NCBI RefSeq assembly: GCF_947500985.1
Contig: NZ_CANMTX010000001.1
Location: 1-64,000, forward strand
Reading direction: 5' to 3'
Length of the DNA: 64,000 nucleotides
Origin: an uncultured Maribacter sp.
Lineage (GTDB): Bacteria; Bacteroidota; Bacteroidia; Flavobacteriales; Flavobacteriaceae
Shown here: piece by piece, positions 30,604 to 49,894 of the stretch
Layout of the letters: every line of letters starts with the position of its first letter
Numbering within the stretch: the first letter of the stretch is position 1
The notes under the pieces: generated by a model
Seen by the model: the letters and a program-made list of their open reading frames with translations, nothing else
What the model was told of the DNA's origin: nothing
Databases searched by the model: none
Made by a program: the position numbers and the translations under genes

Positions 30604-31245
30604 ATGCAAAAACATAGTAAACTTGGTTTAGCCGTAAATTCTGATTTTGGTGTGCAAGATGAAGAAGATAAAGAGTCGGGCGCAAATAAGAAAAAGGTTT
30701 TTGTTGTTAAGAATACAGAAACCCATGTTTGGAAAAAGTTAATAGATGGTGATGAGTCTGCTCTTGGCGATTTATACAACATATATATAGACTGTTTATT
30801 TAGCTATGGTATAAATTGTATAAAAGATCGAACTTATGTAATGGATTGTATTCACGATCTTTTTGTTGATTTATACAAATACCGCGAGAATTTATCAATG
30901 ACCGATAATGTGAAGTTCTATTTATTTAAATGCTTAAAGAGAAAGATTAATAGAAAGTATACTACTAAAACGGTATCTATTACAGATGAATACCAATATT
31001 CATTAGACCAACAGACAAGAAATTATACTACTTCTTATGAAGAAGAAATTATTCAAAAAGAACTTGTAACCGAAAAACGTATGATTTTGGCAGCAGCCTT
31101 AGATTCGTTAACCAAAAAACAAAGAAAAGGTTTGTTTTTAAGGTTTAATCAAGATCGCAGTTATGAAGAAATTTCTGAAATAATGGATGTGTCAGTGCAA
31201 ACAGCTAGAACTATAATATATAGGGCTTTGAAGGCATTAAGGTAG
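30604..31245 (+). CDS. ECF-type RNA polymerase sigma factor (Bacteroidota FecI-like)
   Basis: 213 aa. Sigma region 2 is at about 43-115 (WKKLIDGDESALGDLYNIYI, DCIHDLFVDLYKYRENL) and region 4 at about 155-212 (ALDSLTKKQRKGLFLRFNQD, YEEISEIMDVSVQTARTIIY, RALKAL), the helix-turn-helix that contacts the -35 element. An N-terminal extension of 35 charged residues is poorly conserved, so translation could start later. FecR (anti-sigma) follows after 99 nt and an STN-domain SusC after that, the standard trans-envelope signalling order. It probably activates the downstream susCD genes when ligand is bound. Confidence 0.92.
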   Translation: MQKHSKLGLAVNSDFGVQDEEDKESGANKKKVFVVKNTETHVWKKLIDGDESALGDLYNIYIDCLFSYGINCIKDRTYVMDCIHDLFVDLYKYRENLSMTDNVKFYLFKCLKRKINRKYTTKTVSITDEYQYSLDQQTRNYTTSYEEEIIQKELVTEKRMILAAALDSLTKKQRKGLFLRFNQDRSYEEISEIMDVSVQTARTIIYRALKALR

Positions 31246-31344
31246 TTTGTTAAATTAAATTGTCTATAAATTTAGAATTCCTTGCTTATTATTTTAGAGT
31301 GCTTTGATAGGTTTAAAAGCCTAACCAATAATTAATATTTAACT

Positions 31345-32409
31345 ATGGAAAAAATAAATCCGAATAATGTAAATTTTTCATCGATTACCGATGAGGAAAA
31401 TACGGATTTGAAAAAACGAATTTTTAATACTATTAAAAAGGATAAAAGAAGAAATAGAAATGTATGGTATAAAAGTTTAGCTGCAGCATGTTTTATTGGT
31501 TGTATAAGCCTTGGGTTTTATTACAACAACATGACTTCAGAAACAAATTCAATAACTGACTTTGTTAATTCTTCAACCATTGAAAATAATAACCCAACTT
31601 CAAATGAAGTAGTTCTTACTTTGGGTAAAGGCAACGATTTAAAAATTAAAGAAGACGTTGCTGCTATTAATTATTCTAAAAGCGGTAAAAATGTGACCAT
31701 AGGTAATGGTCAAACTTTTAATCAGAATATTGCTGATTCAGAAAAGGTTGTTTTCAATACATTAAGCGTTCCTTACGGTAAACGATCAACATTGACCCTT
31801 TCTGATGGAAGTAAAGTATGGTTGAACTCAGGTTCTAAATTAGTATACCCTATTGCCTTTCATGGAGATAAAAGAGAAGTATATATAGAGGGTGAAGCAA
31901 TTTTTGAGGTAACCCATAACAAAAAGAAACCCTTTTATGTTATTTCAGATACACAGGTGGTAGAAGTATTAGGTACTGTTTTTGGCGTCACAAATTATCC
32001 AGATGAAAACTCAACGAATACCATCCTTAAAAGTGGTAGTGTTCAAATAAGTTATCAAAATATGAAGACAGCTTCTACTCATTCAGATAAGATGAAGATT
32101 TCTCCTGGTACTAAAGCTAGTTATGACAAAAACACCAAAAGTATTGTTTCTGAGAAAGTTGATGTTGATAATTACTTTTCATGGAAAGATGGCTTTCTCA
32201 TATTCAAGAATAACGATATGAAATTTATAATGAAAAGAATATCACGATACTATAATGTAGAAATAGCCATACAAAATGAAAAATTGGCTACAGAAACTTT
32301 CTCTGGCTATCTTGATTTGAATGAAGATATACTTTCTGTGATAAACAGCATAAGAGAAAGTACTAATATGGAATTTTCAAAAACTGATAATAAAATAATA
32401 ATCAAATAA
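31345..32409 (+). CDS. FecR family anti-sigma/transmembrane regulator
   Basis: 354 aa. A short cytoplasmic N-terminus (1-40) is followed by one transmembrane helix at about 43-60 (KSLAAACFIGCISLGFYY). The periplasmic FecR domain is at about 145-240 (VPYGKRSTLTLSDGSKVWLN, GSKLVYPIAF, REVYIEGEAIFEVTHNKKKP, VLGTVFGVTNYPD), then a C-terminal DUF4974 secretin-like domain about 280-354 (DGFLIFKNNDMKFIMKRISR). It holds the adjacent ECF sigma factor and releases it upon a signal from the STN domain of the cognate SusC. The pairing is inferred from gene order. Confidence 0.93.
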   Translation: MEKINPNNVNFSSITDEENTDLKKRIFNTIKKDKRRNRNVWYKSLAAACFIGCISLGFYYNNMTSETNSITDFVNSSTIENNNPTSNEVVLTLGKGNDLKIKEDVAAINYSKSGKNVTIGNGQTFNQNIADSEKVVFNTLSVPYGKRSTLTLSDGSKVWLNSGSKLVYPIAFHGDKREVYIEGEAIFEVTHNKKKPFYVISDTQVVEVLGTVFGVTNYPDENSTNTILKSGSVQISYQNMKTASTHSDKMKISPGTKASYDKNTKSIVSEKVDVDNYFSWKDGFLIFKNNDMKFIMKRISRYYNVEIAIQNEKLATETFSGYLDLNEDILSVINSIRESTNMEFSKTDNKIIIK

Positions 32410-32460
32410 TCTTTTCGCCAATGAAATAAAACTGAATAATTTTTTTTGAAGTAGCAATAA

Positions 32461-32538
32461 ATAAAAAAGCCAGAAGATGTTCCCGCATCTTCCGGCAATT
32501 AATATCAATATTGCTGTTTTACAGCAACATTAAATAAC
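32461..32538 (-). ncRNA. Candidate cis-antisense sRNA opposite the susC leader (DonS-like)
   Basis: On the minus strand a -7 box TATTTTTG (32544-32551) is preceded by TTG at 32573-32575 with 21-nt spacing, giving an expected start near 32538. A short hairpin TTGCTGT/ACAGCAA (32511-32527) follows, then an intrinsic terminator at 32469-32496 with a T-rich tail ending near 32461. The RNA would be about 78 nt and complementary to the 5' leader of the susC mRNA. Antisense sRNAs in this exact place, between anti-sigma and susC genes, are known in Bacteroides fragilis (the DonS type), where they repress the uptake genes. No expression evidence here. Confidence 0.42.
32469..32496 (-). terminator. Minus-strand intrinsic terminator between fecR and susC
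   Basis: On the minus strand GCCGGAAGATG and CATCTTCTGGC pair (11 bp including one G-U) around a 6-nt loop and are followed by TTTTTTATTTATT. On the plus strand the same stem has an A-C mismatch and no T-tract, so the element is oriented against the flanking genes. Confidence 0.7.
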
Positions 32539-32543
32539 CAACA

Positions 32544-32575
32544 CAAAAATATGAAAAATATCATACCAGTCGCAA
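32544..32575 (-). promoter_or_regulatory. Candidate antisense promoter at the susC start
   Basis: TATTTTTG (32544-32551, minus strand) with TTG at 32573-32575, spacing 21 nt. The -7 box overlaps the susC start codon region, where A-rich sequence is common, so a chance match cannot be excluded. Confidence 0.35.
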
Positions 32576-35889: not shown

Positions 35890-35892
35890 AAG

Positions 35893-37336: not shown

Positions 37337-37369
37337 ACACATTGAGAGACTTCGTTTCTCTCAATGTGT
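37337..37369 (+). terminator. Hairpin terminator after susD of locus B
   Basis: ACACATTGAGAGA and TCTCTCAATGTGT form a perfect 13-bp stem with a 7-nt loop, followed by ACTTTTTT. It lies 31 nt past the SusD stop and before the enzyme genes, so transcription of the enzymes probably depends on read-through or another promoter. Confidence 0.82.
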
Positions 37370-37425: not shown

Positions 37426-38568
37426 ATGGATACACAACGTAGAAATCTTGCGAAATTACTTTCGTTAGGAGCATTGTTTCCTGCTCAAGCAGCTTATTCG
37501 TTAAATAATATTTTAGAATCTATACCTGCAGATTCAAGTAAGCAATTATTACAGACTCTTGGGGAAAAAGGAATAGAGAAACTGTTTAAAAAAGCTGTCG
37601 TCTATGATGGTCTGGTCATTTCTCGTAATTGGAATGAAGATTCTTTTAAAGCTTTGGCTGAATCTGGTTATACCGGTTTTAATGCTTCTTTAGATTCTGG
37701 GAAACTTGAAAAATCTCTAAAGAGTATAGAAGAATGGAAACAAATTATCAGTAATAATCCAGATAGATTATTGTTGACCAAAAGTGCCAATGATATTGTT
37801 ACTGCCAAAAAAGAAGATAAAGTGGCCGTAATGTTAGGTTTTCAAAGTTCTAGAATGTTAGAAGGCACTATAAAAAATTTAGATACCCTTTATGAGGCTG
37901 GTATGAGATGGATGCAACTTACATACAACTCTCGTAACTTAATTGGAGATGGGAGTACCGAAAGAACCAATGTAGGGTTATCTGACTATGGCGTTGAAGT
38001 TGTAGAACGAATGAATGAATTGGGTATTATTATAGACCTTTCTCATTGTGGTAAGCAAACAACCAACGATGGTATAGAATTTAGTAAATCTCCGGTTTCC
38101 ATAAATCACTCTATGTGCGAGGCATTGCACAAGAATCACCCACGTTCCAAAACCGATGAGCAGATAAAGGCTATGGCAGATAAAGGGGGTATTATAGGTA
38201 TCATATGTCTGGGGTATATGATCGGACCTAACTTAGGGACGGATACAACATTAGAAACGTATGTAGACCATATAGATCACGCAGTTAAAATAGGTGGAAT
38301 TGACCATGTAGGTGTAGCTGCAGATTTTGCTATACAAGGTCTAGAAGCTACGGGTGCAACAAGAGAAAATTGGTATGTGCCAAGACTAACTAGATTTAAA
38401 CCTTCATACAAAGTACAATGGCCACCATGGATTCCTGAACTAGATAAACCTGATAGATATTTGCAGGTCGCAAAGATCCTTGACAAAAGAGGTTATAGTA
38501 CCGGAGATATAGAAAAAATATTAGGTCAAAACTGGATTCGCTTCAACAAGGAAGTTCTAAAACCATAA
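37426..38568 (+). CDS. Membrane dipeptidase-like protein (peptidase M19 family, altered metal site)
   Basis: 380 aa. The N-terminus TQRRNLAKLLSLGALFPAQA looks like a twin-arginine export signal. The barrel fold of M19 is recognisable: GFQSSRMLEGTIKNLD, MQLTYNSRNLIGDGS, IIDLSHCGKQT (His207), PVSINHSM (His228), HPRSKTDEQIKAMADKGGII and HVGVAADF. However, the usual HxD pair near the N-terminus is replaced by DGLVISRNW (61-69) and the bridging glutamate position reads LGFQ (Gln140). A subgroup of M19 homologues with this pattern is known to me from annotation, without an assigned substrate. Activity on dipeptides, including those with D-residues, is typical of the family but uncertain here. Confidence 0.82.
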   Translation: MDTQRRNLAKLLSLGALFPAQAAYSLNNILESIPADSSKQLLQTLGEKGIEKLFKKAVVYDGLVISRNWNEDSFKALAESGYTGFNASLDSGKLEKSLKSIEEWKQIISNNPDRLLLTKSANDIVTAKKEDKVAVMLGFQSSRMLEGTIKNLDTLYEAGMRWMQLTYNSRNLIGDGSTERTNVGLSDYGVEVVERMNELGIIIDLSHCGKQTTNDGIEFSKSPVSINHSMCEALHKNHPRSKTDEQIKAMADKGGIIGIICLGYMIGPNLGTDTTLETYVDHIDHAVKIGGIDHVGVAADFAIQGLEATGATRENWYVPRLTRFKPSYKVQWPPWIPELDKPDRYLQVAKILDKRGYSTGDIEKILGQNWIRFNKEVLKP

Positions 38569-38619: not shown

Positions 38620-40614
38620 ATGAATAATAGTAGTATTTATATCATCCTTATTTTTGGAATACTCTTTTCGTGCAAAGATAATCACACAGCAAAAACCGAA
38701 ATTAAAACGATTTACGATGTGGTATTTCGTGAAAACCTTGCAGGTACATATGAAAAATGGAGTACTGGCGATAATAGTTTTAATTTTTATTACACCTATA
38801 CAGATAGAGGTCGTGGACCAGAGGTTACAGAGAAAATTACTCTGAATAATCAAAATTTCATAGTGTCAGATTCTATTATAGGTGTGAATTATCTAAAAGA
38901 TTCTATTAGCGAAAGCTTTATAGTTACAGGTAGTACTGCTTCATGGAAAAACCCCATGAGTGAAGATAAAGGTGATTTTAATGGTAACCAACTATATTTT
39001 AGACATGACGGTTCACCTGCTGTCTATGAAATTCTTGCGCAACTTTTACTAAAGTCTGAGGATAAAAAAATTAATCTATATCCTGAGGGTAAAGTAGAGT
39101 TGGTTGATGATTTTTCAATAACTCTTTCTGATAGTACACCAATAAACCTTTTAATGGTCAAAGGTTTAGATATGAACCCGACGTATTTATGGATTCAAAA
39201 GAATGTAATGATAGCCAGTATTTCTGGTAACCTTCATATCATTAGAGAAGATTTCAAAGAGTTTAGAAAAGAACTAAAATCTTTGCAGGATACATATGAG
39301 GATAATTATCTGATTAAAATATCAAAAGAGCTTTCCCATCAAATTGATAAGACCATTATTAAAAATGTGAATGTCTTTTCTCCTGAAGGGACTATTGTAT
39401 ACAATCAAGATGTTTTTATAGACGGAACGGTTATCCAGTCTATAAAACCATCTAAGGGGAAAATTTTAAATGGAACTGCTCAGGTTATTGATGGTACAGG
39501 AAAAACGCTTTTGCCTGGTATGTTCGATATGCATACGCACAACACAAAATTTAGGGGGCTTTTACATTTAGCGGGTGGTGTAACCTCAGTTAGGGATCTA
39601 GCGAATAATAAGCAATTGAATCAATTAAGTGAACAGTTCGATAAGAATGAGATTATAGGTCCTAATATTGTCACTTTTTGTGGTATTATAGATGGATCTG
39701 GACCTTTTGCGAACCAAAGAAATGTAGTTGATAATTTAGAAGAAGGTTTGGCTGAAATTCAATCTTATAAAGATTTAGATTATGATCAAATTAAATTATA
39801 CAGTTCAATAAGGCCAGAGTGGGTAAAACCTTTAGCCGCTAAAGCGCATGAGTTAGGTATGCGTGTAAGTGGTCATATACCTGCTTATATGACAGCCTCA
39901 CAAGCTATCAACCAAGGTTATAATGAAATTCAGCATATGAATATGTTGTTTTTGAATTTCATGTCAGATACTATAGATACCAGAACACCATTGAGATTTA
40001 CCATGGTTGCGAATCATGGGGTTGATATAGATTTAAAATCAAAGGAATATCTAGATTTTGTGTCATTATTAAAATCTAAAGATATTCTAGTAGATCCTAC
40101 GATGGCCATTTTTGAGAATATGTTTGTTTCTCAAAAAGGAGAACCCAGCCCAACATATAGCAAAATAATGAATAGACTACCGTTAATAGAACAGCGCGCT
40201 TTCTATAGTGGAGGCCTACCTAAAGCTGGTGAAAAGGTTGCTTTGTATAAAGATAGTTATACGAATATGCTTAATGCGTTGAACGACATGTACAAACGAG
40301 GTGTGTCTATAGTACCGGGTACAGATGGTTTACCAGGTTTTTTATATCATAGAGAGTTGGAGTTATATGAAAAGGCAGGTATACCTGCTGCAGAAGTAAT
40401 AAAGATGGCTACAATTAATTCTGCTAAGATAACGGGTGTTTCAGATTCTTTAGGGTCGATTGAAGTAGGTAAAAAAGCAGACCTTATTCTTGTTGATGGT
40501 AATCCTTTAGAAAATATAAGTGATATAAGAAGAGTAGAGTGGACGATAAAGGGAGGACATCTTTATTTCGCCGAAGAGCTTTATAACAAAATGGGTATCA
40601 AACACTTTAAATAA
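38620..40614 (+). CDS. Exported amidohydrolase-superfamily lipoprotein with extra N-terminal domain (first paralog)
   Basis: 664 aa, lipobox GILFSC. Residues about 25-250 form a beta-rich domain of unknown function (TGSTASWKNPMSEDKG, LYFRHDGSPAVYEI). From about 255 is a metal-dependent amidohydrolase: DMHTHN (His305, His307), IKLYSS with Lys392 as the likely carboxylated ligand, SGHIPAY (His419), IQHMN (His439) and GTDGLPG (Asp569). All metal ligands are present. The closest families by layout are imidazolonepropionase-like and Xaa-Arg/Xaa-Lys/prolidase-like carboxypeptidases, suggesting cleavage of an amide or peptide bond in the periplasm. It is followed after 7 nt by an FG-GAP protein and then by a second paralog. 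Confidence 0.82.
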   Translation: MNNSSIYIILIFGILFSCKDNHTAKTEIKTIYDVVFRENLAGTYEKWSTGDNSFNFYYTYTDRGRGPEVTEKITLNNQNFIVSDSIIGVNYLKDSISESFIVTGSTASWKNPMSEDKGDFNGNQLYFRHDGSPAVYEILAQLLLKSEDKKINLYPEGKVELVDDFSITLSDSTPINLLMVKGLDMNPTYLWIQKNVMIASISGNLHIIREDFKEFRKELKSLQDTYEDNYLIKISKELSHQIDKTIIKNVNVFSPEGTIVYNQDVFIDGTVIQSIKPSKGKILNGTAQVIDGTGKTLLPGMFDMHTHNTKFRGLLHLAGGVTSVRDLANNKQLNQLSEQFDKNEIIGPNIVTFCGIIDGSGPFANQRNVVDNLEEGLAEIQSYKDLDYDQIKLYSSIRPEWVKPLAAKAHELGMRVSGHIPAYMTASQAINQGYNEIQHMNMLFLNFMSDTIDTRTPLRFTMVANHGVDIDLKSKEYLDFVSLLKSKDILVDPTMAIFENMFVSQKGEPSPTYSKIMNRLPLIEQRAFYSGGLPKAGEKVALYKDSYTNMLNALNDMYKRGVSIVPGTDGLPGFLYHRELELYEKAGIPAAEVIKMATINSAKITGVSDSLGSIEVGKKADLILVDGNPLENISDIRRVEWTIKGGHLYFAEELYNKMGIKHFK

Positions 40615-40621
40615 ATATAAA

Positions 40622-41743
40622 ATGAAAGTAAAATTAATTTTTCTTTTTTCCCTTTTTTTATACACCGTCAATGGGCAATCGTTGGAGTTTTTTACCAGTG
40701 GTAGATTAATATTGGGTACGCATAAAGAGAGAACAGCATCTGTAGGTGTTGGAGATATCGATAATGACGGCGATGCAGATATTTTAGTAGCCAACGGTCG
40801 TCACTGGCCAGGACAAAACAGAATATTCGTTAATAATGGTAGAGGGGTATTTACAGTTTCAAAAAGCTTAGGATTAGAGAGTGAAACAACCTATTCTACA
40901 GAACTTGCCGATTTTGATGGCGATGGAGATTTAGATATAGCCGTAGGTAACGACATGGCACCAAATTACATATTTCTAAACGATGGCAAAGGTGACTTTA
41001 CAAGAGCTTCAAGTTTTGGGGTGGCGTATGCACCAACAAGAAATATAGTAGTTGCAGATATTGACCAAGACGGCGATAAAGATATTCTAATAACCAATAG
41101 AGGTAAAGAGAATGAGATTTGCCTGAATAACGGTGATGGAACTTTTTCTAAGTCAATAGGTTTTGGAAATAAGGAAGATTCGACAATCGATGTGGAAGTT
41201 GCTGATATGAACGGTGATGGTAACCTTGATCTTATCCTTGCGAATAGAGATGATCAACCAAATTTTGTGTATTTGAATGAAGGTAATTTACAGTTTACCA
41301 AGAAAGTGCCATATGGCACAGGTAATGATATTACCCGTTCTGTAGCTATTGCTGATATAGATAAAGACGGATTCTTAGATATTGTAACTGCGAATATCGG
41401 AGAGTCTAATGTTATTTATTTTGGGGATAAAAAGCAGACCTACCAACGTAAGATAGCATTTGATCCTAGTGATGATAAATCTTATTCTATAGCTTTAGGT
41501 GATTTGGACAAGGATGGAGATATGGATATTATCATAGCTAATGTCAGAGGTTCTAATTCAGTTTTTATTAATTCTAATGACGGAAAAATTTGGGAGAAAA
41601 TAACCTTGGCAAATGAAGATTTTAATACTTATGATATTACTGTTTTTGATTTAAATGGAGATGACAAGTTAGATATTATTGAAAGTAACTCAGACGAGAT
41701 AAACCGATATTACTTCAATAGATTTACTCCTGAATTTCCATAA
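40622..41743 (+). CDS. Exported FG-GAP/VCBS repeat protein
   Basis: 373 aa with a signal peptide (MKVKLIFLFSLFLYTVNG). At least seven repeats of about 45 residues follow the pattern .VGDIDNDGDADILVANG, .ADFDGDGDLDIAVGND, .ADIDQDGDKDILITNR, .ADMNGDGNLDLILANR, .ADIDKDGFLDIVTANI, .GDLDKDGDMDIIIANV and .FDLNGDDKLDIIESN. This predicts a single calcium-binding seven-bladed beta-propeller occupying the whole protein. It may bind the substrate or a partner at the cell surface. It sits between the two paralogous amidohydrolases, mirroring the propeller lipoprotein of locus A. Confidence 0.88.
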   Translation: MKVKLIFLFSLFLYTVNGQSLEFFTSGRLILGTHKERTASVGVGDIDNDGDADILVANGRHWPGQNRIFVNNGRGVFTVSKSLGLESETTYSTELADFDGDGDLDIAVGNDMAPNYIFLNDGKGDFTRASSFGVAYAPTRNIVVADIDQDGDKDILITNRGKENEICLNNGDGTFSKSIGFGNKEDSTIDVEVADMNGDGNLDLILANRDDQPNFVYLNEGNLQFTKKVPYGTGNDITRSVAIADIDKDGFLDIVTANIGESNVIYFGDKKQTYQRKIAFDPSDDKSYSIALGDLDKDGDMDIIIANVRGSNSVFINSNDGKIWEKITLANEDFNTYDITVFDLNGDDKLDIIESNSDEINRYYFNRFTPEFP

Positions 41744-41790: not shown

Positions 41791-43833
41791 ATGAAAGTAA
41801 AATATTTAATCATCTGTGGTTTTTTAGCATTGCTTACAGCATGCTCTTCTGAAACTTCTAAAACCTCTAAATGGGAAAATTTCGAAGATGAGGGTAAATT
41901 CTTTGTTTATCGTAGGCAGTCTCAAATAGGAGAAGAGACCTATAACGTTTCTACAAAGAATGACACTATTATAGTAACCTCTATTCAAGGAGAAAATGAA
42001 CGAGGAAGAATTAGTGGAGTAGAGTCAAAATTATACTTGACAACAGACCTAGAACCAATTTCTTATTTCAGTAGACGTATTTCTAATAATGATACTACCA
42101 ATATCATTAAGATGGAAGTAAACGGAGATAAAATCTCCATTTGGGAAAAGCATTTTGATATGGTTACCTCAAATAAAAAAGAAGCATTTTTTACAGTGAA
42201 CAGTAACATTCCTGCTGGTATTGAAATGATGCTATATCATTATTACTTTAAGCAAAACGGTACTACTGCGTTACCGACCTTACCTAGAGGAGAAGTTTCT
42301 TTGAAGCATAAAGGAGAAGATATTGTTCAGATTGCCGGTAAAGATGTTGCACTTGATCGTTATGTTGTTGAAGGAATCAATTGGGGCGGTAGAACGATAT
42401 GGCTAGACAAGTCTAAGAACTTGGTTGCTGTTGTTAAGGCCAATACTCAAATTAGAGAGTTGATCAAAAAAGGATATGAAGAAGCTAAGCCATATTTTAT
42501 TAAAGGAAATGTGGAGGAACAAATGGCGCAACTTTCTGGTTACACTAAAAGCTTAAAAGGAGAACAATCACAAATTACTGCTTTGGTAGGTGGCGATGTT
42601 GTTGATGGTTTAAAAGATGCTACACAAAAAAATATGACTGTTATAATAGAAAATGGTCGTATAACATCAATAGGTAGTTTTTCCGAAATTACAATTCCTG
42701 ATAATGCTAAAATTATAGATGTATCAGGTAAAACCTTAATGCCCGGTATGTGGGATATGCATGCGCATTCTAATCAAGTACAATGGGGTCCAGCTTATTT
42801 GGCAGGTGGTGTAACCACTATTAGGGATAATGGCAATGAGCTAGAGTTTGCTACGGCTTTTAGAGATGCTATAACTAAGAATGGTGCTACGGGTCCAGAT
42901 ATATTATTGGCAGGTATGACCGACGGACCTGGTCCAAAAGGAAACGGAATTATTAGAGCGCGATCGGTAGAAGAAGCTAAAGAAGTTGTATCACTATATC
43001 ACAAAAACGGATACGAGCAAATTAAGATTTATACCTCTATTGAACCTGAAATTTTGAAAGTATTATCAGATGAGGCTCATAAAGTAGGTATGACGGTAAC
43101 AGGTCATGTACCAGCTTTGGTAAATAGTACTAATAAGGCAGTTGAAAGCGGTATGGATATGTTGAGCCATTCTAATAGAATATTGGCAGTATTGTTTCCT
43201 GATCAAAAAGTATCTGACTTGGGAGCTTTTTATATGGCAAAAAATGATATTACAGATGCACAAATAAATGAAGCGATTGCCTTTTATTTAAAACATGGTA
43301 CGGTGTTAGATCCTACGCTTGGCTTAGGTGTTATTCGAACGTTGCCGAAAGGAGAGCCAATGGAGACATTAGAGCCAGATGCTGGTAGAATGGCATATGA
43401 GCTTTTTGAAAGCAAAAGGTTTAGAACTGGAGCAAATGAAAAGCGTGCTGAATTGTCCAAACAAAATATTATTAAATCAGCTGAAGTTATTGGAAAGTTT
43501 TTTAAAGCCGGAATTCCTGTAGTTGCTGGTACAGATAATTTTGCGCCAGGATTCGGACATTTTTTAGAATTGGAAACATACCAGAAATATGGTGGGTTAA
43601 CTCCTTTCGAAGCAATTCAAACAGCAACCATAATCCCAGCAACTGTAATGGGTAAGGGAGATGAAACAGGAACATTAGAAATTGGTAAAGAGGCTGATAT
43701 TGCAATTTTAGACAAAAATCCTTTAACGGATATTTCCAATTTAAGGTCAGTTTCCGCAGTGATGACTAATGGTAATTACTATGAAAGTGAACCTTTATGG
43801 GAAGCTGCCGATTTTAAAACTACTAGAGACTAG
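41791..43833 (+). CDS. Exported amidohydrolase-superfamily lipoprotein with extra N-terminal domain (second paralog)
   Basis: 680 aa, lipobox ALLTAC. The layout matches the protein at 38620-40614: a beta-rich N-terminal domain (about 25-260, FEDEGKFFVYRRQSQIGE) and a metal hydrolase with DMHAHS (His324, His326), QIKIYTS (Lys412), TGHVPAL (His439), MLSHSN (His460) and GTDNFAPG (Asp582). All ligands of a binuclear amidohydrolase site are present. The two paralogs have diverged around the substrate loops, suggesting they process different parts of the same substrate or two related substrates. A periplasmic or surface location is expected. Confidence 0.82.
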   Translation: MKVKYLIICGFLALLTACSSETSKTSKWENFEDEGKFFVYRRQSQIGEETYNVSTKNDTIIVTSIQGENERGRISGVESKLYLTTDLEPISYFSRRISNNDTTNIIKMEVNGDKISIWEKHFDMVTSNKKEAFFTVNSNIPAGIEMMLYHYYFKQNGTTALPTLPRGEVSLKHKGEDIVQIAGKDVALDRYVVEGINWGGRTIWLDKSKNLVAVVKANTQIRELIKKGYEEAKPYFIKGNVEEQMAQLSGYTKSLKGEQSQITALVGGDVVDGLKDATQKNMTVIIENGRITSIGSFSEITIPDNAKIIDVSGKTLMPGMWDMHAHSNQVQWGPAYLAGGVTTIRDNGNELEFATAFRDAITKNGATGPDILLAGMTDGPGPKGNGIIRARSVEEAKEVVSLYHKNGYEQIKIYTSIEPEILKVLSDEAHKVGMTVTGHVPALVNSTNKAVESGMDMLSHSNRILAVLFPDQKVSDLGAFYMAKNDITDAQINEAIAFYLKHGTVLDPTLGLGVIRTLPKGEPMETLEPDAGRMAYELFESKRFRTGANEKRAELSKQNIIKSAEVIGKFFKAGIPVVAGTDNFAPGFGHFLELETYQKYGGLTPFEAIQTATIIPATVMGKGDETGTLEIGKEADIAILDKNPLTDISNLRSVSAVMTNGNYYESEPLWEAADFKTTRD

Positions 43834-43935
43834 GCTAAAATTTCACCAAAATTAATTTTTGGTATTATCATAACATCTAGGACAAATGCTGTAGAGATAT
43901 AGTGTATAGTAGAAATATAAAATTGAGATAATTAT

Positions 43936-44874
43936 ATGGTCAAGTTAAAAACAACTTTTATAAAGTATATCTGTTTTTGTTGCATTCTAATAAGCGCTCA
44001 AAATTTATTGAGTCAAGAACTGAAAATGAAATATCTAGGTGTGGCAGGCTGGGAAATTTCAAATGATAGTCTTACTGTACTGGTAGACCCTTATATATCT
44101 AGACTTAAATTAAAAGGAAATCCACGATTTTATGGCGAAGGAGATGAACGTAAAGTTTTCAATAGTGACGACATCTACGAATCGGATACCGTTGCAATTA
44201 ATAAAGTAATTACTAAAGCAGATTATATTTTGGTGCATCATTCACACACTGATCACCTGGCAGATGTGCCATACATTGCTAAAAAGACGGGTGCTGTTGT
44301 TATTGGAACGGAAACTACAGCTACAATTCTAAAGGCTTATGGTATACCGCAAAAGCAATTGATTACCGTAAAGGGTGGAGAAGATTATCAATTCGATGAT
44401 TTTTCTGTTAGGGTGATTCCCTCTATTCATTCGGCATTAGGGGATAAGTGTTATTTTGATTCAAGAACATATTCTCATCCGGACAAGTTAACTATTCCTT
44501 TAAAAGTAGGAGAATTTGTAGAGGGTGGCTCTTTAATGTTTCTATTGCGTGTCGATTCGCATAAAATACTTACTTCAGGGTCAATGAATTTTATAGAAAG
44601 AGAAGTAGCCGGACTCAAACCTGACGTTCTGATACCGGGAATAAATCTTTCTCGATTGGAAGTATATAAATACACAGAAAGGCTCTTAGAACTAACCGGA
44701 TACCCAAAGACTATAATTCCTGCACATTGGGATAATTTTAGAATACCCTATGGTTTTTCTCAAGAAGATCCGATCAAGAAAAAGGTACTGCCTTTTATAG
44801 AAGAAGTGAAAGCCTTAATACCAGATGCCAACGTTATCATTCCCGTTCATTTAGAAACCATATTAATTAAATAA
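43936..44874 (+). CDS. Exported MBL-fold metallo-hydrolase
   Basis: 312 aa. Signal peptide about 1-26 (YICFCCILISAQNLLS). The metallo-beta-lactamase motif HxHxDH is present as HHSHTDH (His102, His104, Asp106, His107). Later histidines at SIHSALG and PAHWDNF probably complete the site. The opening MKYLGVAGWEIS and VLVDPY are typical of UlaG-like/RomA-type beta-lactamase-fold hydrolases that act on lactones or phosphodiesters. Here a lactone- or cyclic-amide-opening role would fit the neighbours but is inferred. Spacing of 102 nt from the preceding gene leaves room for regulation. Confidence 0.85.
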   Translation: MVKLKTTFIKYICFCCILISAQNLLSQELKMKYLGVAGWEISNDSLTVLVDPYISRLKLKGNPRFYGEGDERKVFNSDDIYESDTVAINKVITKADYILVHHSHTDHLADVPYIAKKTGAVVIGTETTATILKAYGIPQKQLITVKGGEDYQFDDFSVRVIPSIHSALGDKCYFDSRTYSHPDKLTIPLKVGEFVEGGSLMFLLRVDSHKILTSGSMNFIEREVAGLKPDVLIPGINLSRLEVYKYTERLLELTGYPKTIIPAHWDNFRIPYGFSQEDPIKKKVLPFIEEVKALIPDANVIIPVHLETILIK

Positions 44875-44923
44875 AGCGACTGTAATTATAAAAGAATTAC
44901 CGCTTGCATTCAATGCTATTTAT

Positions 44924-45787
44924 ATGACAAGTACCACCAAAACTAATCCTCTTTGGAAAGAGGCTAAGATTAAAAATTATTTACCTCATATGACGGTACC
45001 AGAAGTGGAAGCTTTTCTGAAAAAGTCAGATATGGTTATCATACCCATAGGGGCTTTAGAGCAACATTCCAGTCATTTACCCATAGGTACAGATTTTATA
45101 AACGGCGTAGAGCTTTGCAAACTAATTGCACAAGAACGAGATATTCTGGTAGCGCCAGTTTTAATGGCAGGTCAATCTCCATATCACATGGCATTTGCTG
45201 GCTCAATAACGTTAAGTGCTGAAGTAATTGTAAAGGTACATATGGAGACCGTAGAGAGTTTGATAAAGCATGGTTTTAAACGCTTCGTATTTATGAATTC
45301 TCATGGCGGTAATACGGCTATAACTACATTTTTGGTTGATCAGATAAATCAAAAAACAGCTGCAGTTGCGGTTGATTATGCCGTGGTTACTAAGCCGTTT
45401 TTAAAAGAAGCTGCACCTATCAATATAACGAAACTAGATCGTCATGCAGGTACTGGTGAAACATCAGACTCATTATTCTTAATGCCTAGTTTGGTACAAC
45501 AAGAAAAGGCTACTGCAACCAAATTAACGCTTCCTAATCATTTGGCTAAAATGCTACCGGATGTTATAAAAGAGGAACCAATTGCTAAATTATTATTTCT
45601 TTCTGAGGGCTTAAAAGCAGTGGAAACCGGAAAGAAAACCTCTACTAAAGAAATGACTAGTACCGGTGTTTGGGGCGAGTTGGATCCAAAAGATGCTACG
45701 TTAGAAAGAGGAGCTAGAAACATTGAACGGCAAATTGCTGCAAGTGTAAAATTTATAGATAGATGGAATGAACTAATTGAAGATTAA
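44924..45787 (+). CDS. Creatininase family amidohydrolase
   Basis: 287 aa, no signal peptide, so probably cytoplasmic. Metal ligands of the creatininase family are present: PIGALEQHSSHLPIGTD (Glu46, His48, Asp57), MNSHGGN (His127) and a downstream GTGETSDS with glutamate. Family members hydrolyse cyclic or linear amides, including creatinine, the formamide in riboflavin and F420 synthesis, and mycofactocin peptide ends. The substrate here is unknown. In this operon it would act on an imported intermediate with an amide bond. Located 49 nt downstream of the MBL-fold gene and 12 nt upstream of the alpha/beta hydrolase. Confidence 0.9.
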   Translation: MTSTTKTNPLWKEAKIKNYLPHMTVPEVEAFLKKSDMVIIPIGALEQHSSHLPIGTDFINGVELCKLIAQERDILVAPVLMAGQSPYHMAFAGSITLSAEVIVKVHMETVESLIKHGFKRFVFMNSHGGNTAITTFLVDQINQKTAAVAVDYAVVTKPFLKEAAPINITKLDRHAGTGETSDSLFLMPSLVQQEKATATKLTLPNHLAKMLPDVIKEEPIAKLLFLSEGLKAVETGKKTSTKEMTSTGVWGELDPKDATLERGARNIERQIAASVKFIDRWNELIED

Positions 45788-45799
45788 AAATAGTATCAC

Positions 45800-46693
45800 A
45801 TGATAAATATAAGAGTCGTTGTTTCAGTTTTAAGTTTTTTATATGTTGTATGTATAAAGGCACAAGACGTAACTATGTTTCCTGAGTCAACCAAGGTTTT
45901 AAAAATAGAACCTTCAAAAACCGATTCAAGAATAACAACTGCCAATACTCCGCATTTTATTGCTTACAATACCAATAACACAAAAGGAAAATTACTGCTC
46001 TTTATTCCCGGTACCAATGGTATTGCTTTAAAAGGACCTATGCATTTGTTCAGTACCGCTGTAGAACAAGGCTATTCGGTTATTAATTTATCCTATATCA
46101 ATACACCTGCAATTGCACGAATTTGTAAAGGTGACAATCTAATAAAAAACGCTGATTGTGCTGAAGATTTTAGAAATAGAAGAGTATATGGCGATACTAA
46201 ATTTACCTTAATTGAAGACATGCCGTATGATGCCATTGTTAATAGACTTACTAAACTGTTAGTATACCTCATCGAGAATGATAAACCTGGTAATTGGGAA
46301 CGCTATCTAGAGAATGGAGAGCCTAATTGGAATGAAATTGCCCTTGCAGGTCAATCTCAAGGTGGTGGAATGTCTGCATTTATAGCAAAAACTCATTTGG
46401 TACATAGGGTAATTGATTTTTCTGGCGGATGGGATTATTCAGCAAAAAATAAAATAGCCAACTGGTATTTCAAAAATAGTAAAACACCACTTGAAAGATA
46501 TTACGGAACCTATCATGTTAAAGAACCTACAGCTAATGTAATTATCGAAACGTATAAAGCAATGGAAATTCCCGATAGTCATGTTCATGCCTTTGACTTA
46601 GAGGTGCCACAAGGAAAAAGAGCACACTCTAATGGAGTGCGAAATCTAGGGTACAAAGAACAATGGATAACATTGCTGGGTGATGGTAATTAA
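45800..46693 (+). CDS. Exported alpha/beta-hydrolase-like protein
   Basis: 297 aa with a signal peptide (MINIRVVVSVLSFLYVVCIKAQ). The central pattern LLLFIPGTNG (oxyanion region) and ALAGQSQGGGMSAF (nucleophile Ser186 in GQSQGG) fit a serine hydrolase of the alpha/beta fold; RAHSNGV near 276 may hold the catalytic histidine. The Cys pair RICKGDNLIKNADCAEDF may form a disulfide, in agreement with export. Likely an esterase or amidase; I do not recognise a named family. It is embedded in the operon with short spacers on both sides. Confidence 0.78.
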   Translation: MINIRVVVSVLSFLYVVCIKAQDVTMFPESTKVLKIEPSKTDSRITTANTPHFIAYNTNNTKGKLLLFIPGTNGIALKGPMHLFSTAVEQGYSVINLSYINTPAIARICKGDNLIKNADCAEDFRNRRVYGDTKFTLIEDMPYDAIVNRLTKLLVYLIENDKPGNWERYLENGEPNWNEIALAGQSQGGGMSAFIAKTHLVHRVIDFSGGWDYSAKNKIANWYFKNSKTPLERYYGTYHVKEPTANVIIETYKAMEIPDSHVHAFDLEVPQGKRAHSNGVRNLGYKEQWITLLGDGN

Positions 46694-46721
46694 TAGTTAA
46701 TCGGTAAATAAAAAATTCTCT

Positions 46722-47531
46722 ATGAAAAGATATTTCTACTTCTCAATTGCCTTGGTGTTGGTTTGCTGTAATGATGCTAAGGTTGAAAATAATAAAAATT
46801 CTCAATCTGAAATACCAATTAAAAACAACTTGGGAATGAATGTTTTAGGACTAATAGGAGGAACTTCTTGGCATTCAACGATAGAGTATTACAGGGCTAT
46901 AAATGAAACTGTAAATACGCATTATGGAAATAATACAAATCCGCCTTTATTGGTGTATACCTTGAACCAAGCTGAAGTGCATCGATTTCAAGTGGAGAAT
47001 AAATGGGACTCTATAGCACATATGTTGGTCAATGCCGGTTTAAATCTTAACAAGGCAGGAGCAGAATCTGTTCTTTTTTGTGCCAATACACCACATAAAG
47101 TGTATGATGCCGTTCAAGAAAAATTAGACATTCCTGTTATACATATTGCAGATGCCACTGCTAGTGCCATTCATAAACAAGAGTTGAAAAAAGTACTCTT
47201 TTTGGGAACTAAATATAGTATGAAAGAAAACTTTATAACCAAAAGGATTGAGGATAATGGCATCGATGTTTTAGTTCCACAAGAGCAAGAAGTGATAGAC
47301 GAACTTCATAGAATTATTATTGAAGAACTTACCTATGGTAACATCGTTGAATCTTCAAAAGCATATGTGTTGAAAGTAATACAGAACTCAGTTAAAGAAG
47401 GAGCAGAGGGAGTGGTTTTGGGTTGTACGGAGTTTCCTTTAATGATATTTCAAGATGATTTAGAAACTCCAATATTTGACACTACTAAAATCCATTCTAT
47501 GGCAGGGGTTGACTTTATCTTAAAAAAATAA
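46722..47531 (+). CDS. Aspartate/glutamate racemase family protein with lipoprotein-type signal
   Basis: 269 aa. The C-terminal 231 residues are a complete cofactor-independent racemase: MNVLGLIGGTSWHSTIEYYR, LFCANTPH (Cys120) and LGCTEFPL (Cys235), the two catalytic cysteines. They are preceded by MKRYFYFSIALVLVCC and a polar linker, which looks like a lipoprotein signal with the modified cysteine at 15 or 16. Racemases of this family are normally cytoplasmic, so export would be unusual. If translation instead began at the ATG of codon 39 (46836) a normal cytoplasmic enzyme would result, but the signal-like upstream sequence argues against that. Followed after 2 nt by a carboxylate transporter. 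Confidence 0.88.
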   Translation: MKRYFYFSIALVLVCCNDAKVENNKNSQSEIPIKNNLGMNVLGLIGGTSWHSTIEYYRAINETVNTHYGNNTNPPLLVYTLNQAEVHRFQVENKWDSIAHMLVNAGLNLNKAGAESVLFCANTPHKVYDAVQEKLDIPVIHIADATASAIHKQELKKVLFLGTKYSMKENFITKRIEDNGIDVLVPQEQEVIDELHRIIIEELTYGNIVESSKAYVLKVIQNSVKEGAEGVVLGCTEFPLMIFQDDLETPIFDTTKIHSMAGVDFILKK

Positions 47532-47533
47532 CT

Positions 47534-48985
47534 ATGCATTTTTCAAAACAAAATATAGGTAGGGTTTTAGGACCATTGGTTTTCTTTTACATTCTTTTCT
47601 TTTTCAAGCCAGATGACCTTTCTGAGACTGCTAATGCCGTTTTAGCATCTGTAGCTTGGGTGGCTATTTGGTGGATAACAGAGGCTATTCCTATTTATGT
47701 TACCGCATTGCTACCTTTAATTTTGTTTCCACTAACAGGAGGATTGAGTTTGTCTGAAACCGCTATGTCCTACGGTCATAAATATATCTTTTTATATATG
47801 GGAGGGTTTATTCTTGCCATTGCTATTGAAAAATGGAACTTGCATAGAAGAATAGCATTGACAATTATTAATCTTATAGGTACCAATGTGATCAATATTA
47901 TTCTTGGATTTATGCTTGCAACTGCCTTTTTAAGCATGTGGATTTCCAATACAGCAGCTGCCGTAATTATTTTACCCATTGCAATGGCTATAGTTTATCA
48001 ACTCAACGATAACCCTGAAACAGAGAAAAATGAAAATAAAATTTTTGGAAAAGCATTAATGTTGGCAATTGCATATAGCGCATCTATTGGCGGTATAGCT
48101 ACATTAATTGGCACACCAACAAATTTGGTTTTAGCAGGAGTAGTGCAATCAACCTTTGGTAAAGAGATTACATTTTCAGAATGGTTTGTTTTAGGTTTTC
48201 CTATTGCCATACTGCTGTTGTTTTTATGTTGGTACTACTTAACTAGATTCGCTTTTACATTTAAACAAAAAGAATTTCCGGGTGGTCGTAAAGAAATAGC
48301 TTTAAGACTTAAAGAACTTGGTAAATTAGGCTATGAAGAAAAACTGGTGTTGGTTGTTTTTGCAGCTACGGGTTTTGCATGGATAGCACGTTCGTTTCTA
48401 ATACAACGTTTTATTCCTGCTATGGACGATACCATAATCGCCATCTGTACGGTAATTGTTCTATTCTTAATACCTACGCGTCAAAAAGGCAAAAAATTGA
48501 TGGAATGGGAAGATGCGGTTAAATTACCTTGGGGTATTTTATTATTATTCGGAGGAGGCTTAACATTGGCACTAGGATTTGACAGTAGCGGATTGGCACT
48601 ATGGATTGGAAATAAACTATCTGCCTTACAGGTGTTACCTTTCTTTTTATTATTGTTGATATTGATTACGATAGTGAATTTCTTAACAGAGATAACTTCT
48701 AATATAGCTACAACAGCAATTCTACTGCCTGTTCTAGTGTCATTGGCACCAGTACTAGGAGTTCATCCTTACTATTTAATGATCGCTGCAACATTAGCTG
48801 CATCCTGTGCTTTTATGTTACCTGTGGCTACGCCGCCAAATGCAGTGGTTTTTGGCTCAGGTTATCTTGAAATGCAGGATATGGTCAAAAAAGGTTTCTG
48901 GCTAAATATTATCTCTATTTTAATACTTACAGTAGTAGTTTATATTGTACTTCCGTTGGTTTGGGATTTAAGCACAACTGTTTAA
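47534..48985 (+). CDS. DASS/SLC13 family sodium:carboxylate symporter
   Basis: 483 aa with about 11-12 hydrophobic segments in the inner membrane. Family motifs: WWITEAIPIYVTALLPLILF near 55, the first SNT site MWISNTAAAVIILP near 137, TLIGTPTNLVLAG near 195, the second site TEITSNIATTAILLPV near 390 and MLPVATPPNAVVFGSG near 432. Members import succinate, fumarate, malate, citrate or aspartate with sodium. Translation is probably coupled to the racemase (2-nt gap). In this locus it would bring in an acidic product released in the periplasm, for example aspartate or a dicarboxylate. Confidence 0.93.
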   Translation: MHFSKQNIGRVLGPLVFFYILFFFKPDDLSETANAVLASVAWVAIWWITEAIPIYVTALLPLILFPLTGGLSLSETAMSYGHKYIFLYMGGFILAIAIEKWNLHRRIALTIINLIGTNVINIILGFMLATAFLSMWISNTAAAVIILPIAMAIVYQLNDNPETEKNENKIFGKALMLAIAYSASIGGIATLIGTPTNLVLAGVVQSTFGKEITFSEWFVLGFPIAILLLFLCWYYLTRFAFTFKQKEFPGGRKEIALRLKELGKLGYEEKLVLVVFAATGFAWIARSFLIQRFIPAMDDTIIAICTVIVLFLIPTRQKGKKLMEWEDAVKLPWGILLLFGGGLTLALGFDSSGLALWIGNKLSALQVLPFFLLLLILITIVNFLTEITSNIATTAILLPVLVSLAPVLGVHPYYLMIAATLAASCAFMLPVATPPNAVVFGSGYLEMQDMVKKGFWLNIISILILTVVVYIVLPLVWDLSTTV

Positions 48986-49102
48986 TATTGAATATTTTAG
49001 TCGGTTTGCGAATGGTGACTTAAAATGTAGTTTAAATGTGAACTATGAAATCATTATCGTATTCTTAATTAAACTTTTACTTAAAATAATAACGTCTACA
49101 GA

Positions 49103-49894
49103 ATGAAAATAGCTATAATAGGTTTTGGAAATATTGGTAAGTATCTTGCGAAATGGGTTGTTAATGAGCCTAGTTTTGAATTGAAATATATTATAACTAG
49201 AACACAAATTGATAAAGAGAATACCGATTTTGCAAATCAACCTGTAGTATTTAAAGAAGAAATTACTTCTGATCTAATCAATGATGTAGATATTATTATT
49301 GAATGTGCTACTAAAGAAGTTGTAACGCAACTGTTGAAGTTTGACGAAATAAACCGTATCGGTAAAAAAATTATTATTATCAGTACGGGTGGACTTTATC
49401 AAAACAAAGCAAGATTAGATAAGTTCAAAAAATGTAATTTTATTTTACCGGTAGGAGCAATTGCAGGGCTAGATGCTATAAAAGCTGTAAATGATGAAAT
49501 TACTTCAATTAAGATAAAGACAACAAAGCATCCTAAAAGTTTAGAGGGAGCTCCGTTTTTTGAAACCTCAAAAATCGAATTATCATCGATAAAAACGCCT
49601 CAGACTATTTGGGAAGGTGAAGTAAGTGAAGCCGTAAAACAATTTCCTAAAAATATTAATGTTGCTGCTAGTATCTATTTTGCATCTAAATGTGAAGAAT
49701 TAAAAATTGAAATAGTTGCAGATCCAAACACAACTAGTAATATGCATGAGATAACTTGTGAGGGCGATTTTGGAAAAATCTATACGCGAACGGAGAATAA
49801 ACCGAGTACGGCTAATCCAAAGACAAGTTTTTTAGCTGTTAAGAGTGTAGTTAGTATTCTGAGAAATATGAATTCAAATATTAAAATCAATTAA
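49103..49894 (+). CDS. Aspartate dehydrogenase (DUF108/NadX-like)
   Basis: 263 aa, cytoplasmic. An N-terminal Rossmann fold (AIIGFGNIGKYLAKWVV, residues 3-19; IIIECATKEVV) binds NAD(P). The catalytic half has PVGAIAGLDAIKAVNDEI, FPKNINVAASIYFASK and the signature ENKPSTANPKTSFLAVKS. These enzymes oxidise L-aspartate to iminoaspartate, which gives oxaloacetate and ammonia or feeds NAD synthesis. No quinolinate synthase or nadC gene is adjacent, so a catabolic role at the end of this cluster is more likely. It is separated from the transporter gene by 117 nt. Confidence 0.9.
   Translation: MKIAIIGFGNIGKYLAKWVVNEPSFELKYIITRTQIDKENTDFANQPVVFKEEITSDLINDVDIIIECATKEVVTQLLKFDEINRIGKKIIIISTGGLYQNKARLDKFKKCNFILPVGAIAGLDAIKAVNDEITSIKIKTTKHPKSLEGAPFFETSKIELSSIKTPQTIWEGEVSEAVKQFPKNINVAASIYFASKCEELKIEIVADPNTTSNMHEITCEGDFGKIYTRTENKPSTANPKTSFLAVKSVVSILRNMNSNIKIN

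What the first reader, a model, noticed from the sequence alone, without database searches (positions are those of the whole stretch)
30604..49894. A SusCD uptake locus linked to amide hydrolases, a racemase, a carboxylate transporter and aspartate dehydrogenase
Seen: sigma factor, FecR, STN-SusC, SusD, then ten same-strand genes with mostly short gaps. These encode an M19-like dipeptidase, two amidohydrolases with full metal sites, an FG-GAP propeller, an MBL hydrolase, a creatininase-family enzyme, an exported alpha/beta hydrolase, an Asp/Glu racemase with both catalytic cysteines, a DASS transporter and an aspartate dehydrogenase. No glycoside hydrolase, lyase or sulfatase is present, so it is not an ordinary polysaccharide locus. 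Inference: it captures an amide- or peptide-linked molecule, possibly containing D- or iso-aspartyl units or a cyclic amide, cleaves and racemises it in the periplasm, imports the acid and deaminates it. I know of no characterised system with this gene set.
Basis: partly seen in the sequence, partly recalled or inferred. Interest (0 to 1): 0.78.

Follow-up and report, generated by a model that had tools for sequence, protein, structure and literature searches.

The report
Bacterial uptake locus for amide-linked nutrients
A marine bacterium carries a conserved gene set that appears to take up a small peptide-like molecule through an outer-membrane pump normally used for sugars and to break it down to an acidic amino acid, but which molecule it eats is still unknown.

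Summary
Window 30604-49894 is one same-strand run of 14 genes with sigma/FecR control, SusC and SusD, and no carbohydrate-enzyme or sulfatase family hit.

Comparison changes the interpretation. M19-like, FG-GAP, amidohydrolase AH2 and a Rid1-type imine deaminase also group in another family of the class, where FG-GAP and AH2 are fused in two genera and Rid1 is often a predicted lipoprotein. Aspartate dehydrogenase is not core: 6 of 11 loci have it, the other 5 have Rid1, none both. It goes with one clade of the transporter.

Two enzyme calls need correcting. The M19-like protein lacks the HxD and Glu metal ligands. The racemase has Ala, not Cys, at the first catalytic position.

Best reading (0.40): a SusCD locus for a peptide-like or N-acyl-amino-acid compound, ending in an acidic amino acid imported by DASS and deaminated through a 2-imino acid. 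The substrate is unproven. Relatives of abh and the racemase sit in SusCD-sulfatase loci, so a sulfated substrate is a live rival.

The parts
30604..31245 (+). ECF sigma factor
   Evidence: Pfam PF08281; NCBIfam TIGR02937 above cut-off, TIGR02985 below
31345..32409 (+). FecR-type anti-sigma factor
   Evidence: PF04773, PF16344
32551..35889 (+). STN-SusC TonB-dependent outer-membrane transporter
   Evidence: TIGR04056 849 bits; STN domain PF07660
35893..37305 (+). SusD-like surface lipoprotein
   Evidence: PF07980, PF14322
37337..37369 (+). intergenic hairpin between susD and M19, 13-pair stem then T-rich tail; a hairpin of -15 kcal/mol or stronger is found after susD in 8 of 11 loci (weaker in L013, L106, L107)
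   Evidence: terminator scan; folding of 11 intergenic regions (in L101, L106, L107 and L144 the stretch also holds the start of M19)
37426..38568 (+). M19-like protein with a twin-arginine-like N-terminus, 2i5g type; HxD and Glu ligands replaced (DGL.I, Q), two His and one Asp kept
   Evidence: PF01244; best PDB 2i5g
38620..40614 (+). AH1, lipoprotein amidohydrolase with complete HxH-K-H-H-D site, paralogue of AH2 (30 percent over 526 aa)
   Evidence: PF01979; motifs in 11 of 11 loci
40622..41743 (+). exported FG-GAP beta-propeller, predicted partner of AH2
   Evidence: PF13517; fused to AH2 in L143 and L170; model pLDDT 90, top match CRTAC1
41791..43833 (+). AH2, lipoprotein amidohydrolase with complete metal site; PDB relatives molinate hydrolase, prolidase, Arg-carboxypeptidase, ochratoxinase
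43936..44874 (+). exported MBL-fold hydrolase, accessory (6 of 11 loci)
   Evidence: PF13483
44924..45787 (+). creatininase-family hydrolase, no signal peptide here (10 of 11 loci)
   Evidence: PF02633 181 bits; metal motifs
45800..46693 (+). exported alpha/beta hydrolase (abh), BPSS1187 family, GQSQGG and His276 invariant in 18 aligned sequences
   Evidence: NF047580 250 bits; alignment; fold
46722..47531 (+). lipoprotein amino-acid racemase-family protein, CANT...GCTE (Ala at the first catalytic position)
   Evidence: PF01177; TIGR00035 above cut-off; PDB 3ojc/5hqt
47534..48985 (+). DASS sodium-coupled anion symporter
   Evidence: TIGR00785 323 bits; tree
49103..49894 (+). aspartate dehydrogenase (NadX-like), lineage-specific (6 of 11 loci)
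   Evidence: PF01958; alignments with 2dc1 and 1h2h along nearly the whole length, match to 1j5p

Best explanation
A sigma/anti-sigma-controlled SusCD nutrient locus that captures a small amide-linked (peptide-like or N-acyl-amino-acid) compound. In the periplasm the FG-GAP-assisted amidohydrolases AH1/AH2 and the M19-like protein open amide bonds, the exported alpha/beta hydrolase (and the MBL protein where present) removes an ester or lactone, and the Ala/Cys-type racemase adjusts the configuration of the released amino acid. DASS imports the resulting acidic amino acid. In the cytoplasm its nitrogen leaves through a 2-imino acid: by aspartate dehydrogenase (aspartate to iminosuccinate, which hydrolyses to oxaloacetate) in the window's lineage, by a Rid1 imine deaminase in sister lineages. 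Shown: gene set, conservation, motif states, FG-GAP::AH2 fusion, the AspDH/Rid1 alternation, the DASS/AspDH link. Inferred: localisation (by eye), substrate class, order of steps, transport specificity.
For: The core block recurs in 10 further loci. All 6 of 36 same-genus genomes with the creatininase gene carry the block. AH1 and AH2 metal sites are intact in 11 of 11 loci; AH2's PDB relatives by name are molinate hydrolase, prolidase, carboxypeptidase and ochratoxinase, which cleave amides or thiocarbamates (recalled). FG-GAP and AH2 are fused in L143 and L170. Each of 11 loci has exactly one of AspDH (6) or Rid1 (5). In the DASS tree the AspDH-bearing loci form one group (100/99), whereas the M19 tree forces at least 3 changes of that label. 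Rid1 proteins PA0814 and ACIAD3089 deaminate amino-acid imines (PMC5619798, passages). AspDH aligns along nearly its whole length with L-aspartate dehydrogenase 2dc1. One Rid1-bearing locus, G229, has a beta-hydroxyaspartate-dehydratase-like gene 68 bases after DASS (BhcB model 411 bits, below its cut-off of 550).
Against: No substrate, expression or enzyme evidence exists. The M19 protein lacks half its metal ligands. The racemase has Ala where PhAspR has Cys82, and Ph1733 with Ala at that place is inactive on Asp and Glu (PMC12838360 passage), so an aspartate role is not implied. Five of 11 loci lack AspDH. The 11 loci are related, so the AspDH/Rid1 alternation is not 11 independent events; for AH1, racemase and FG-GAP the well-supported branches alone do not rule out a single change of the label. 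The BhcB-like gene is in 34 of 36 same-genus genomes (E at most 1e-90) regardless of the locus and is G229's only match at E 1e-30, so its place after DASS may be chance. abh and the racemase also live in SusCD-sulfatase loci with no amidohydrolase relative, two of which-type loci are followed by GH3 genes (L019, L020). DASS proteins also carry non-amino dicarboxylates and sulfate (recalled).
Confidence: 0.4

Rival explanations
1. The substrate is sulfated (a sulfated glycopeptide or small sulfated metabolite). The operon is one half of a system whose sulfatases lie elsewhere or were lost; abh and the racemase are the shared part.
For: All 8 of 397 family genomes with abh (E at most 1e-40) have it either in this operon (3) or beside S1 sulfatases, with SusCD in 4 of those 5. 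Of 18 racemases at least 58 percent identical to the window's but outside the operon, 10 have such a sulfatase gene beside them. Sulfatase genes follow the operon in L013 and L016 (on the other strand in L016, with a formylglycine-generating-enzyme-like gene; by eye and similarity). The window's genome has one close sulfatase relative (57 percent, contig C14).
Against: No relative of those sulfatases was found in or next to the operon in the stretches read of the other 9 loci (the window). 8 of the 18 racemases have no such sulfatase beside them. The sulfatase loci show no M19, AH1, AH2, DASS or AspDH relative next to the racemase. The C14 sulfatase has none of the operon genes around it.
Confidence: 0.18
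2. The key intermediate is an imine or enamine made by amide hydrolysis of a dehydro-amino-acid peptide or N-acyl enamine (dehydropeptidase logic). Rid1 hydrolyses it, and AspDH is an alternative that takes over the imino acid.
For: Rid1 is the partner of M19-AH2 in a second family (L143, L171-L173, L177) and is a predicted lipoprotein (by eye) in 6 of 8 Rid1 proteins there, so imines would arise outside the cytoplasm. Renal dipeptidase of family M19 is known as dehydropeptidase (recalled). Rid1 keeps the Arg needed for deaminase activity in 13 of 13 proteins (criterion from PMC5619798 and PMC4433059 passages).
Against: Rid proteins also clear imines made by many other enzymes. The M19-like metal site is incomplete. 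Rid1 in the Flavobacteriaceae loci has no signal peptide.
Confidence: 0.15
3. A glycan locus whose carbohydrate enzymes lie elsewhere; the hydrolases remove N-acyl, ester or peptide decorations.
For: SusCD with sigma/FecR control is typical of glycan loci (recalled). In L019 the racemase of the sulfatase locus is followed on the same strand by GH3, SGL and GH3 genes; L020 has the same gene clusters after its racemase. The FG-GAP model resembles CRTAC1 and aldos-2-ulose dehydratase propellers.
Against: None of the 14 window proteins has a carbohydrate-enzyme hit among those listed. Aspartate dehydrogenase, racemase and Rid1 do not fit glycan breakdown.
Confidence: 0.14
4. Breakdown or detoxification of a specific natural product (cyclic amide, toxin or vinylogous amide such as a mycosporine), the creatininase-like enzyme opening the ring.
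For: AH2 relatives include molinate hydrolase and ochratoxinase. The creatininase protein also matches the IolN diketo-inosose hydrolase and MftE models, below cut-off.
Against: None of those models passes its cut-off. No paper in the held library holds mycosporine, SusD and Flavobacteri- together.
Confidence: 0.08

Closest known systems
SusCD-type polysaccharide utilisation loci (Bacteroidota)
   Same: sigma/FecR control, STN-SusC, SusD lipoprotein, hydrolases downstream on the same strand, hairpin after susD
   Different: no carbohydrate-enzyme or sulfatase hit; amide hydrolases, racemase, DASS and AspDH instead
RagAB peptide importer of Porphyromonas gingivalis
   Same: a SusCD-like pair implicated in protein uptake (abstract start in the search listing, PMC11817032)
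   Different: RagAB was not compared in sequence here; no such downstream enzyme set is known to me for it (recalled)
RacX of Halocola ammonii (PMC12838360, abstract and passages)
   Same: Ala at the first and Cys at the second catalytic position; order Flavobacteriales; structural kin of EcL-DER
   Different: here the protein has a lipobox or signal in 9 of 11 loci and sits in a SusCD operon; no activity data; the two were not aligned here
M19-family protein of PDB 2i5g
   Same: HxD replaced (DGLIIAKWN) and Glu replaced by Gln (GFQ), as in the alignment
   Different: Tat-like export and partnership with FG-GAP/AH2/Rid1; compared by sequence only. That 2i5g is Pseudomonas PA5396 is recalled; a search for PA5396 found no paper
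L-aspartate dehydrogenase NadX (2dc1, 1j5p)
   Same: similarity along nearly the whole length; N.HEI and NPKTS motifs
   Different: sits after a DASS transporter in a SusCD operon and scores below the NCBIfam equivalog cut-offs (206 of 267 and 183.5 of 206.6 bits)
Rid1 imine deaminases PA0814 and ACIAD3089 (PMC5619798, passages)
   Same: second and fourth best PDB matches of the operon Rid1; catalytic Arg kept
   Different: in another family of the class 6 of 8 copies are predicted lipoproteins, most beside M19/AH2

Membership tests
SusCD nutrient-uptake locus | adjacent TonB-dependent SusC and SusD lipoprotein | tested here: met
   SusC and SusD 3 bases apart; TIGR04056 above cut-off, SusD domains
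Polysaccharide utilisation locus (glycan) | linked carbohydrate-active enzymes | tested here: not met
   no such family listed for the 14 window proteins
Polysaccharide utilisation locus (glycan) | induction by a glycan | not testable with these tools
   needs expression data
Two-thiol Asp/Glu racemase | cysteine at both catalytic positions | tested here: not met
   CANT and GCTE: Ala at the first place in all 11 operon loci and in 82 of 85 aligned rows; the rows include 4 repeated loci, and 3 of the 80 scanned loci gave no row
EcL-DER/RacX-type amino-acid racemase | Thr or Ala at the first place, Cys at the second, PRK10200-like | tested here: met
   TIGR00035 188 bits above cut-off 93, PRK10200 204 bits below its cut-off 417; activity not tested
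M19 membrane dipeptidase | binuclear metal site (HxD, Glu, two His, Asp; ligand set recalled) | tested here: not met
   HxD and Glu absent, two His and Asp present in 15 aligned proteins (14 for HxD, as the L101 ORF was cut short)
Prolidase-like amidohydrolase (AH1, AH2) | HxH, Lys, His, His, Asp metal site (ligand set recalled) | tested here: met
   AH1 11 of 11, AH2 17 of 17 aligned proteins
Creatininase-family hydrolase | Glu-x-His, Asp, His and Glu metal ligands (recalled) | tested here: met
   11 of 11 aligned proteins; creatininase equivalog cut-off not reached (92 of 235 bits)
L-aspartate dehydrogenase | Asp_DH_C domain, His motif N.HEI, NPKTS | tested here: met
   PF01958 97 bits; N.HEI in 5 of 6 (not L013) and NPKTS in 6 of 6 orthologues
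L-aspartate dehydrogenase | NCBIfam equivalog cut-off and activity on aspartate | tested here: inconclusive
   scores below the equivalog cut-offs; activity not testable here
Rid1 imine deaminase (sister loci) | catalytic Arg retained | tested here: met
   13 of 13 proteins; subfamily assigned by near PDB relatives

The most novel reading that the evidence does not exclude
A previously undescribed SusCD catabolic system for imine-yielding amides (dehydro-, D- or beta-hydroxy-amino-acid peptides). An FG-GAP-scaffolded amidohydrolase and a degenerate M19 protein release an unstable 2-imino/enamine acid, and two unrelated enzymes, an (elsewhere exported) Rid1 deaminase and aspartate dehydrogenase, are interchangeable ways of resolving it. 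To my knowledge it would include the first periplasmic Rid proteins.
Probability: 0.15. Interest if true: 0.78.

Novelty: new variant of a known kind. Interest (0 to 1): 0.56.

Why it matters
SusCD systems are usually read as glycan importers. A conserved one built around amide hydrolases, a racemase and a C4-acid-type transporter would widen the substrates assigned to them and point to a dissolved organic nitrogen source used by marine Bacteroidota. The AspDH/Rid1 alternation and the exported Rid1 give a direct, testable handle on its chemistry.

Tried and rejected
Canonical two-cysteine aspartate racemase: rejected on the CANT motif. Canonical M19 dipeptidase site: rejected. BhcB-like dehydratase as part of the operon: downgraded, because it is in 34 of 36 same-genus genomes whether or not the locus is present, is G229's only match, and sits next to DASS in 1 of 11 loci. 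AH1 relatives elsewhere in the phylum (8 of the 10 genomes with a hit, 30-39 percent identity) lie in contexts without the other operon genes, apart from short partial SusC matches in L136 and L138. Half (10 of 20) of the stretches read in the second family have a lone FG-GAP gene with none of the partners. Those 20 stretches cover 22 of the 34 listed places; G703's was read earlier, 11 were not read. In L023 abh and racemase pair without a sulfatase beside them, a third context. The AspDH relative in G173 (73 percent) is not in such an operon: it lies among S58 and S15 peptidase, amidohydrolase, sulfatase and Nramp genes. Literature: searches of the held open-access library listed no paper describing this gene set; that library lacks most subscription journals. 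The fold of abh gave only generic cutinase/esterase matches (TM about 0.5 or lower).
Full report
1. What is there. The window holds 14 consecutive + strand ORFs from 30604 to 49894 with gaps of 2-141 bases. Profile searches identify sigma, FecR, STN-SusC, SusD, M19, amidohydrolase AH1, FG-GAP, amidohydrolase AH2, MBL fold, creatininase, BPSS1187-family alpha/beta hydrolase (abh), Asp/Glu-racemase family, DASS and Asp_DH. No glycoside hydrolase, lyase or sulfatase family is among the listed hits. A strong hairpin lies between susD and M19 (37337-37369). By eye (no predictor was available) AH1, AH2 and the racemase have lipoboxes, FG-GAP, MBL and abh have Sec signals, M19 has a twin-arginine-like start, and creatininase and AspDH have none. 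The genome is a Maribacter: same-genus handles G262, G267, G268 and G280 have contigs of the same lengths as named Maribacter records.

2. Conservation. A scan for racemase relatives kept 80 loci of the 82 found. Seven of them (L011-L017) carry M19, AH1, FG-GAP, AH2, abh, racemase and DASS in this order. Genome searches added G229, G256 and G1106. A SusD gene lies upstream in 11 of 11; SusC was in view in 7 of 11 and was present in all 7, the other stretches being cut before it. Accessory genes: creatininase in 10 of 11, MBL in 6 of 11. SusD in Aureibaculum is only 30 percent like the window's, so a different SusCD serves the same enzymes there. The locus is rare: creatininase in 6 of 36 same-genus genomes at E 1e-30, AH2 in 2 of 395 genomes of the order at E 1e-60, both counts including the window's genome.

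3. AspDH and Rid1 alternate. Six loci have aspartate dehydrogenase after DASS; the other five have a Rid-family gene after AH2; none has both or neither. The loci are related, so this is not 11 independent events. In the DASS tree the AspDH-bearing loci form one side of a branch (1 change, support 100/99). The M19 tree needs at least 3 changes even counting only well-supported branches (some M19 rows are cut short at the start). The AH1 tree needs 3, the racemase 2 and the FG-GAP 2, though their well-supported branches alone force only 1 (other genes' trees were not built). I read this as DASS and AspDH moving as a cassette, which argues that they share a substrate. Among the Rid protein's four best PDB matches are PA0814 and ACIAD3089; both are Rid1 and deaminate amino-acid imines (PMC5619798, passages). 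The arginine held necessary is kept in 13 of 13.

4. An older core. A search of 180 genomes of another family of the class (G703's family) with the fused homologue found 29 with a match at E 1e-100, in 34 listed places. I read 20 stretches that cover 22 of those places: M19-AH2-Rid1 in L171, L172 and L173; M19-FG-GAP-AH2-Rid1 in L177 (AH2 there in two ORFs, one unrelated gene before Rid1); an FG-GAP::AH2 fusion in L170; SusCD-FG-GAP-AH2-Rid1-MBL-creatininase in L176; FG-GAP beside Rid1 in L178 and L180; AH2 alone in L174 and L175; FG-GAP alone in 10. G703 itself (L143) has M19, the same fusion, and Rid1. The fusion in two genera is good evidence that FG-GAP and AH2 act together. Six of the eight Rid1 proteins there (L143, L171, L172, L173, L177, L180) begin with a lipobox signal by eye, so they are probably exported. 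In L176 the creatininase has a signal instead.

5. The racemase has Ala where PhAspR has Cys82 and EcL-DER has Thr83. This is so in all 11 operon loci and in 82 of 85 aligned rows, which include four repeated loci; 3 of the 80 scanned loci gave no row. Halocola RacX with the same Ala/Cys pair racemises 15 of 17 L-amino acids tested, while Ph1733 with Ala is inactive on Asp and Glu (PMC12838360, abstract and passages). In L016 and L107 the racemase has no signal, so its substrate may be met on either side of the inner membrane. The M19 protein resembles 2i5g and lacks HxD and the bridging Glu. AH1 and AH2 do have complete sites.

6. The second home of abh and the racemase. Five distinct loci combine a TPR-type regulator, SusC, SusD, one or two S1 sulfatases and the racemase: L018/L148, L019/L147 (Tamlana), L021 (Algibacter), L028/L149 (Aureibaculum marinum) and L145 (one sulfatase); abh stands upstream in 4 of the 5, L021 being cut there. 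L020 and L146 have abh, two sulfatases and the racemase without SusCD. Shorter forms: L026, L027, L087 (abh, sulfatase, racemase), L025 and L029 (sulfatase, racemase). Pfam confirmed the two L018 sulfatases; the others are assigned by similarity. Of 18 racemases at least 58 percent identical to the window's outside the operon, 10 have such a sulfatase beside them and 8 do not. All 8 of 397 family genomes with abh have it in the operon (3) or beside sulfatases (5). GH3 genes follow the racemase in L019 and, by gene cluster, in L020. The sulfatase's best PDB match is 6hhm, named arylsulfatase (a Formosa ulvan sulfatase by recall). This keeps a sulfated or glycan-linked substrate open.

7. Most likely working. 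SusCD import, periplasmic amide cleavage by AH1/AH2 with the propeller, trimming by M19-like, abh and MBL, racemisation, DASS import, and loss of ammonia through a 2-imino acid. Aspartate is favoured as product only because the dehydrogenase is AspDH-like (match to 2dc1) and rides with DASS. A BhcB-like dehydratase 68 bases after DASS in G229 fits iminosuccinate chemistry but is a genus-wide gene (34 of 36) and proves little. The substrate itself is unknown.

8. Novelty. The ten searches of the open-access library listed no paper that describes this set. It is a new variant of the SusCD nutrient locus, not a new kind of system.

Noticed in passing
window 15907-28275 (- strand): A second, separate SusCD locus beside a LacI-type regulator: SusC (24010-27063), SusD (22422-23990), a FG-GAP/ASPIC-UnbV protein (19023-22316) and a DUF5107-TPR protein (15907-19023).
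   Followed up: no
L143, L171, L172, L173, L177, L180: Rid-family imine deaminases with lipoprotein signal peptides (by eye), next to M19, AH2 or FG-GAP genes; Rid proteins are normally treated as cytosolic (recalled).
   Followed up: partly
L115 1504-2193 (own genome C1:158014-158703): A second Asp/Glu-racemase-family gene lies between ORFs that look like hisF and hisI (by eye), also with CANT at the catalytic position.
   Followed up: no
L100 1999-18661 (G173): An AspDH 73 percent identical to the window's lies in a run of S58 aminopeptidase, amidohydrolase, S15 peptidase, sulfatase, glyoxalase and Nramp genes, without SusCD in view.
   Followed up: partly
L018, L019, L021, L028, L145; L020 and L146 without SusCD: Loci with one or two S1 sulfatases and a racemase of this family, mostly with SusCD and abh; L019 and L020 go on with GH3 genes, and L028 has a GH20 gene about 9 kb beyond the racemase. 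Substrate unknown.
   Followed up: partly
L144 (G1106) abh: The abh gene has one internal TAA in this otherwise complete operon; a real loss or a sequencing error.
   Followed up: no
G251 contig C23:3156-4088 (L215 3153-4088): A second BhcB-like gene, 85 percent identical to the one after DASS in G229, sits away from any operon gene in the 16 kb read.
   Followed up: partly
window 50196-50270: tRNA-Met (cat) on the - strand just after the operon, a possible boundary.
   Followed up: no
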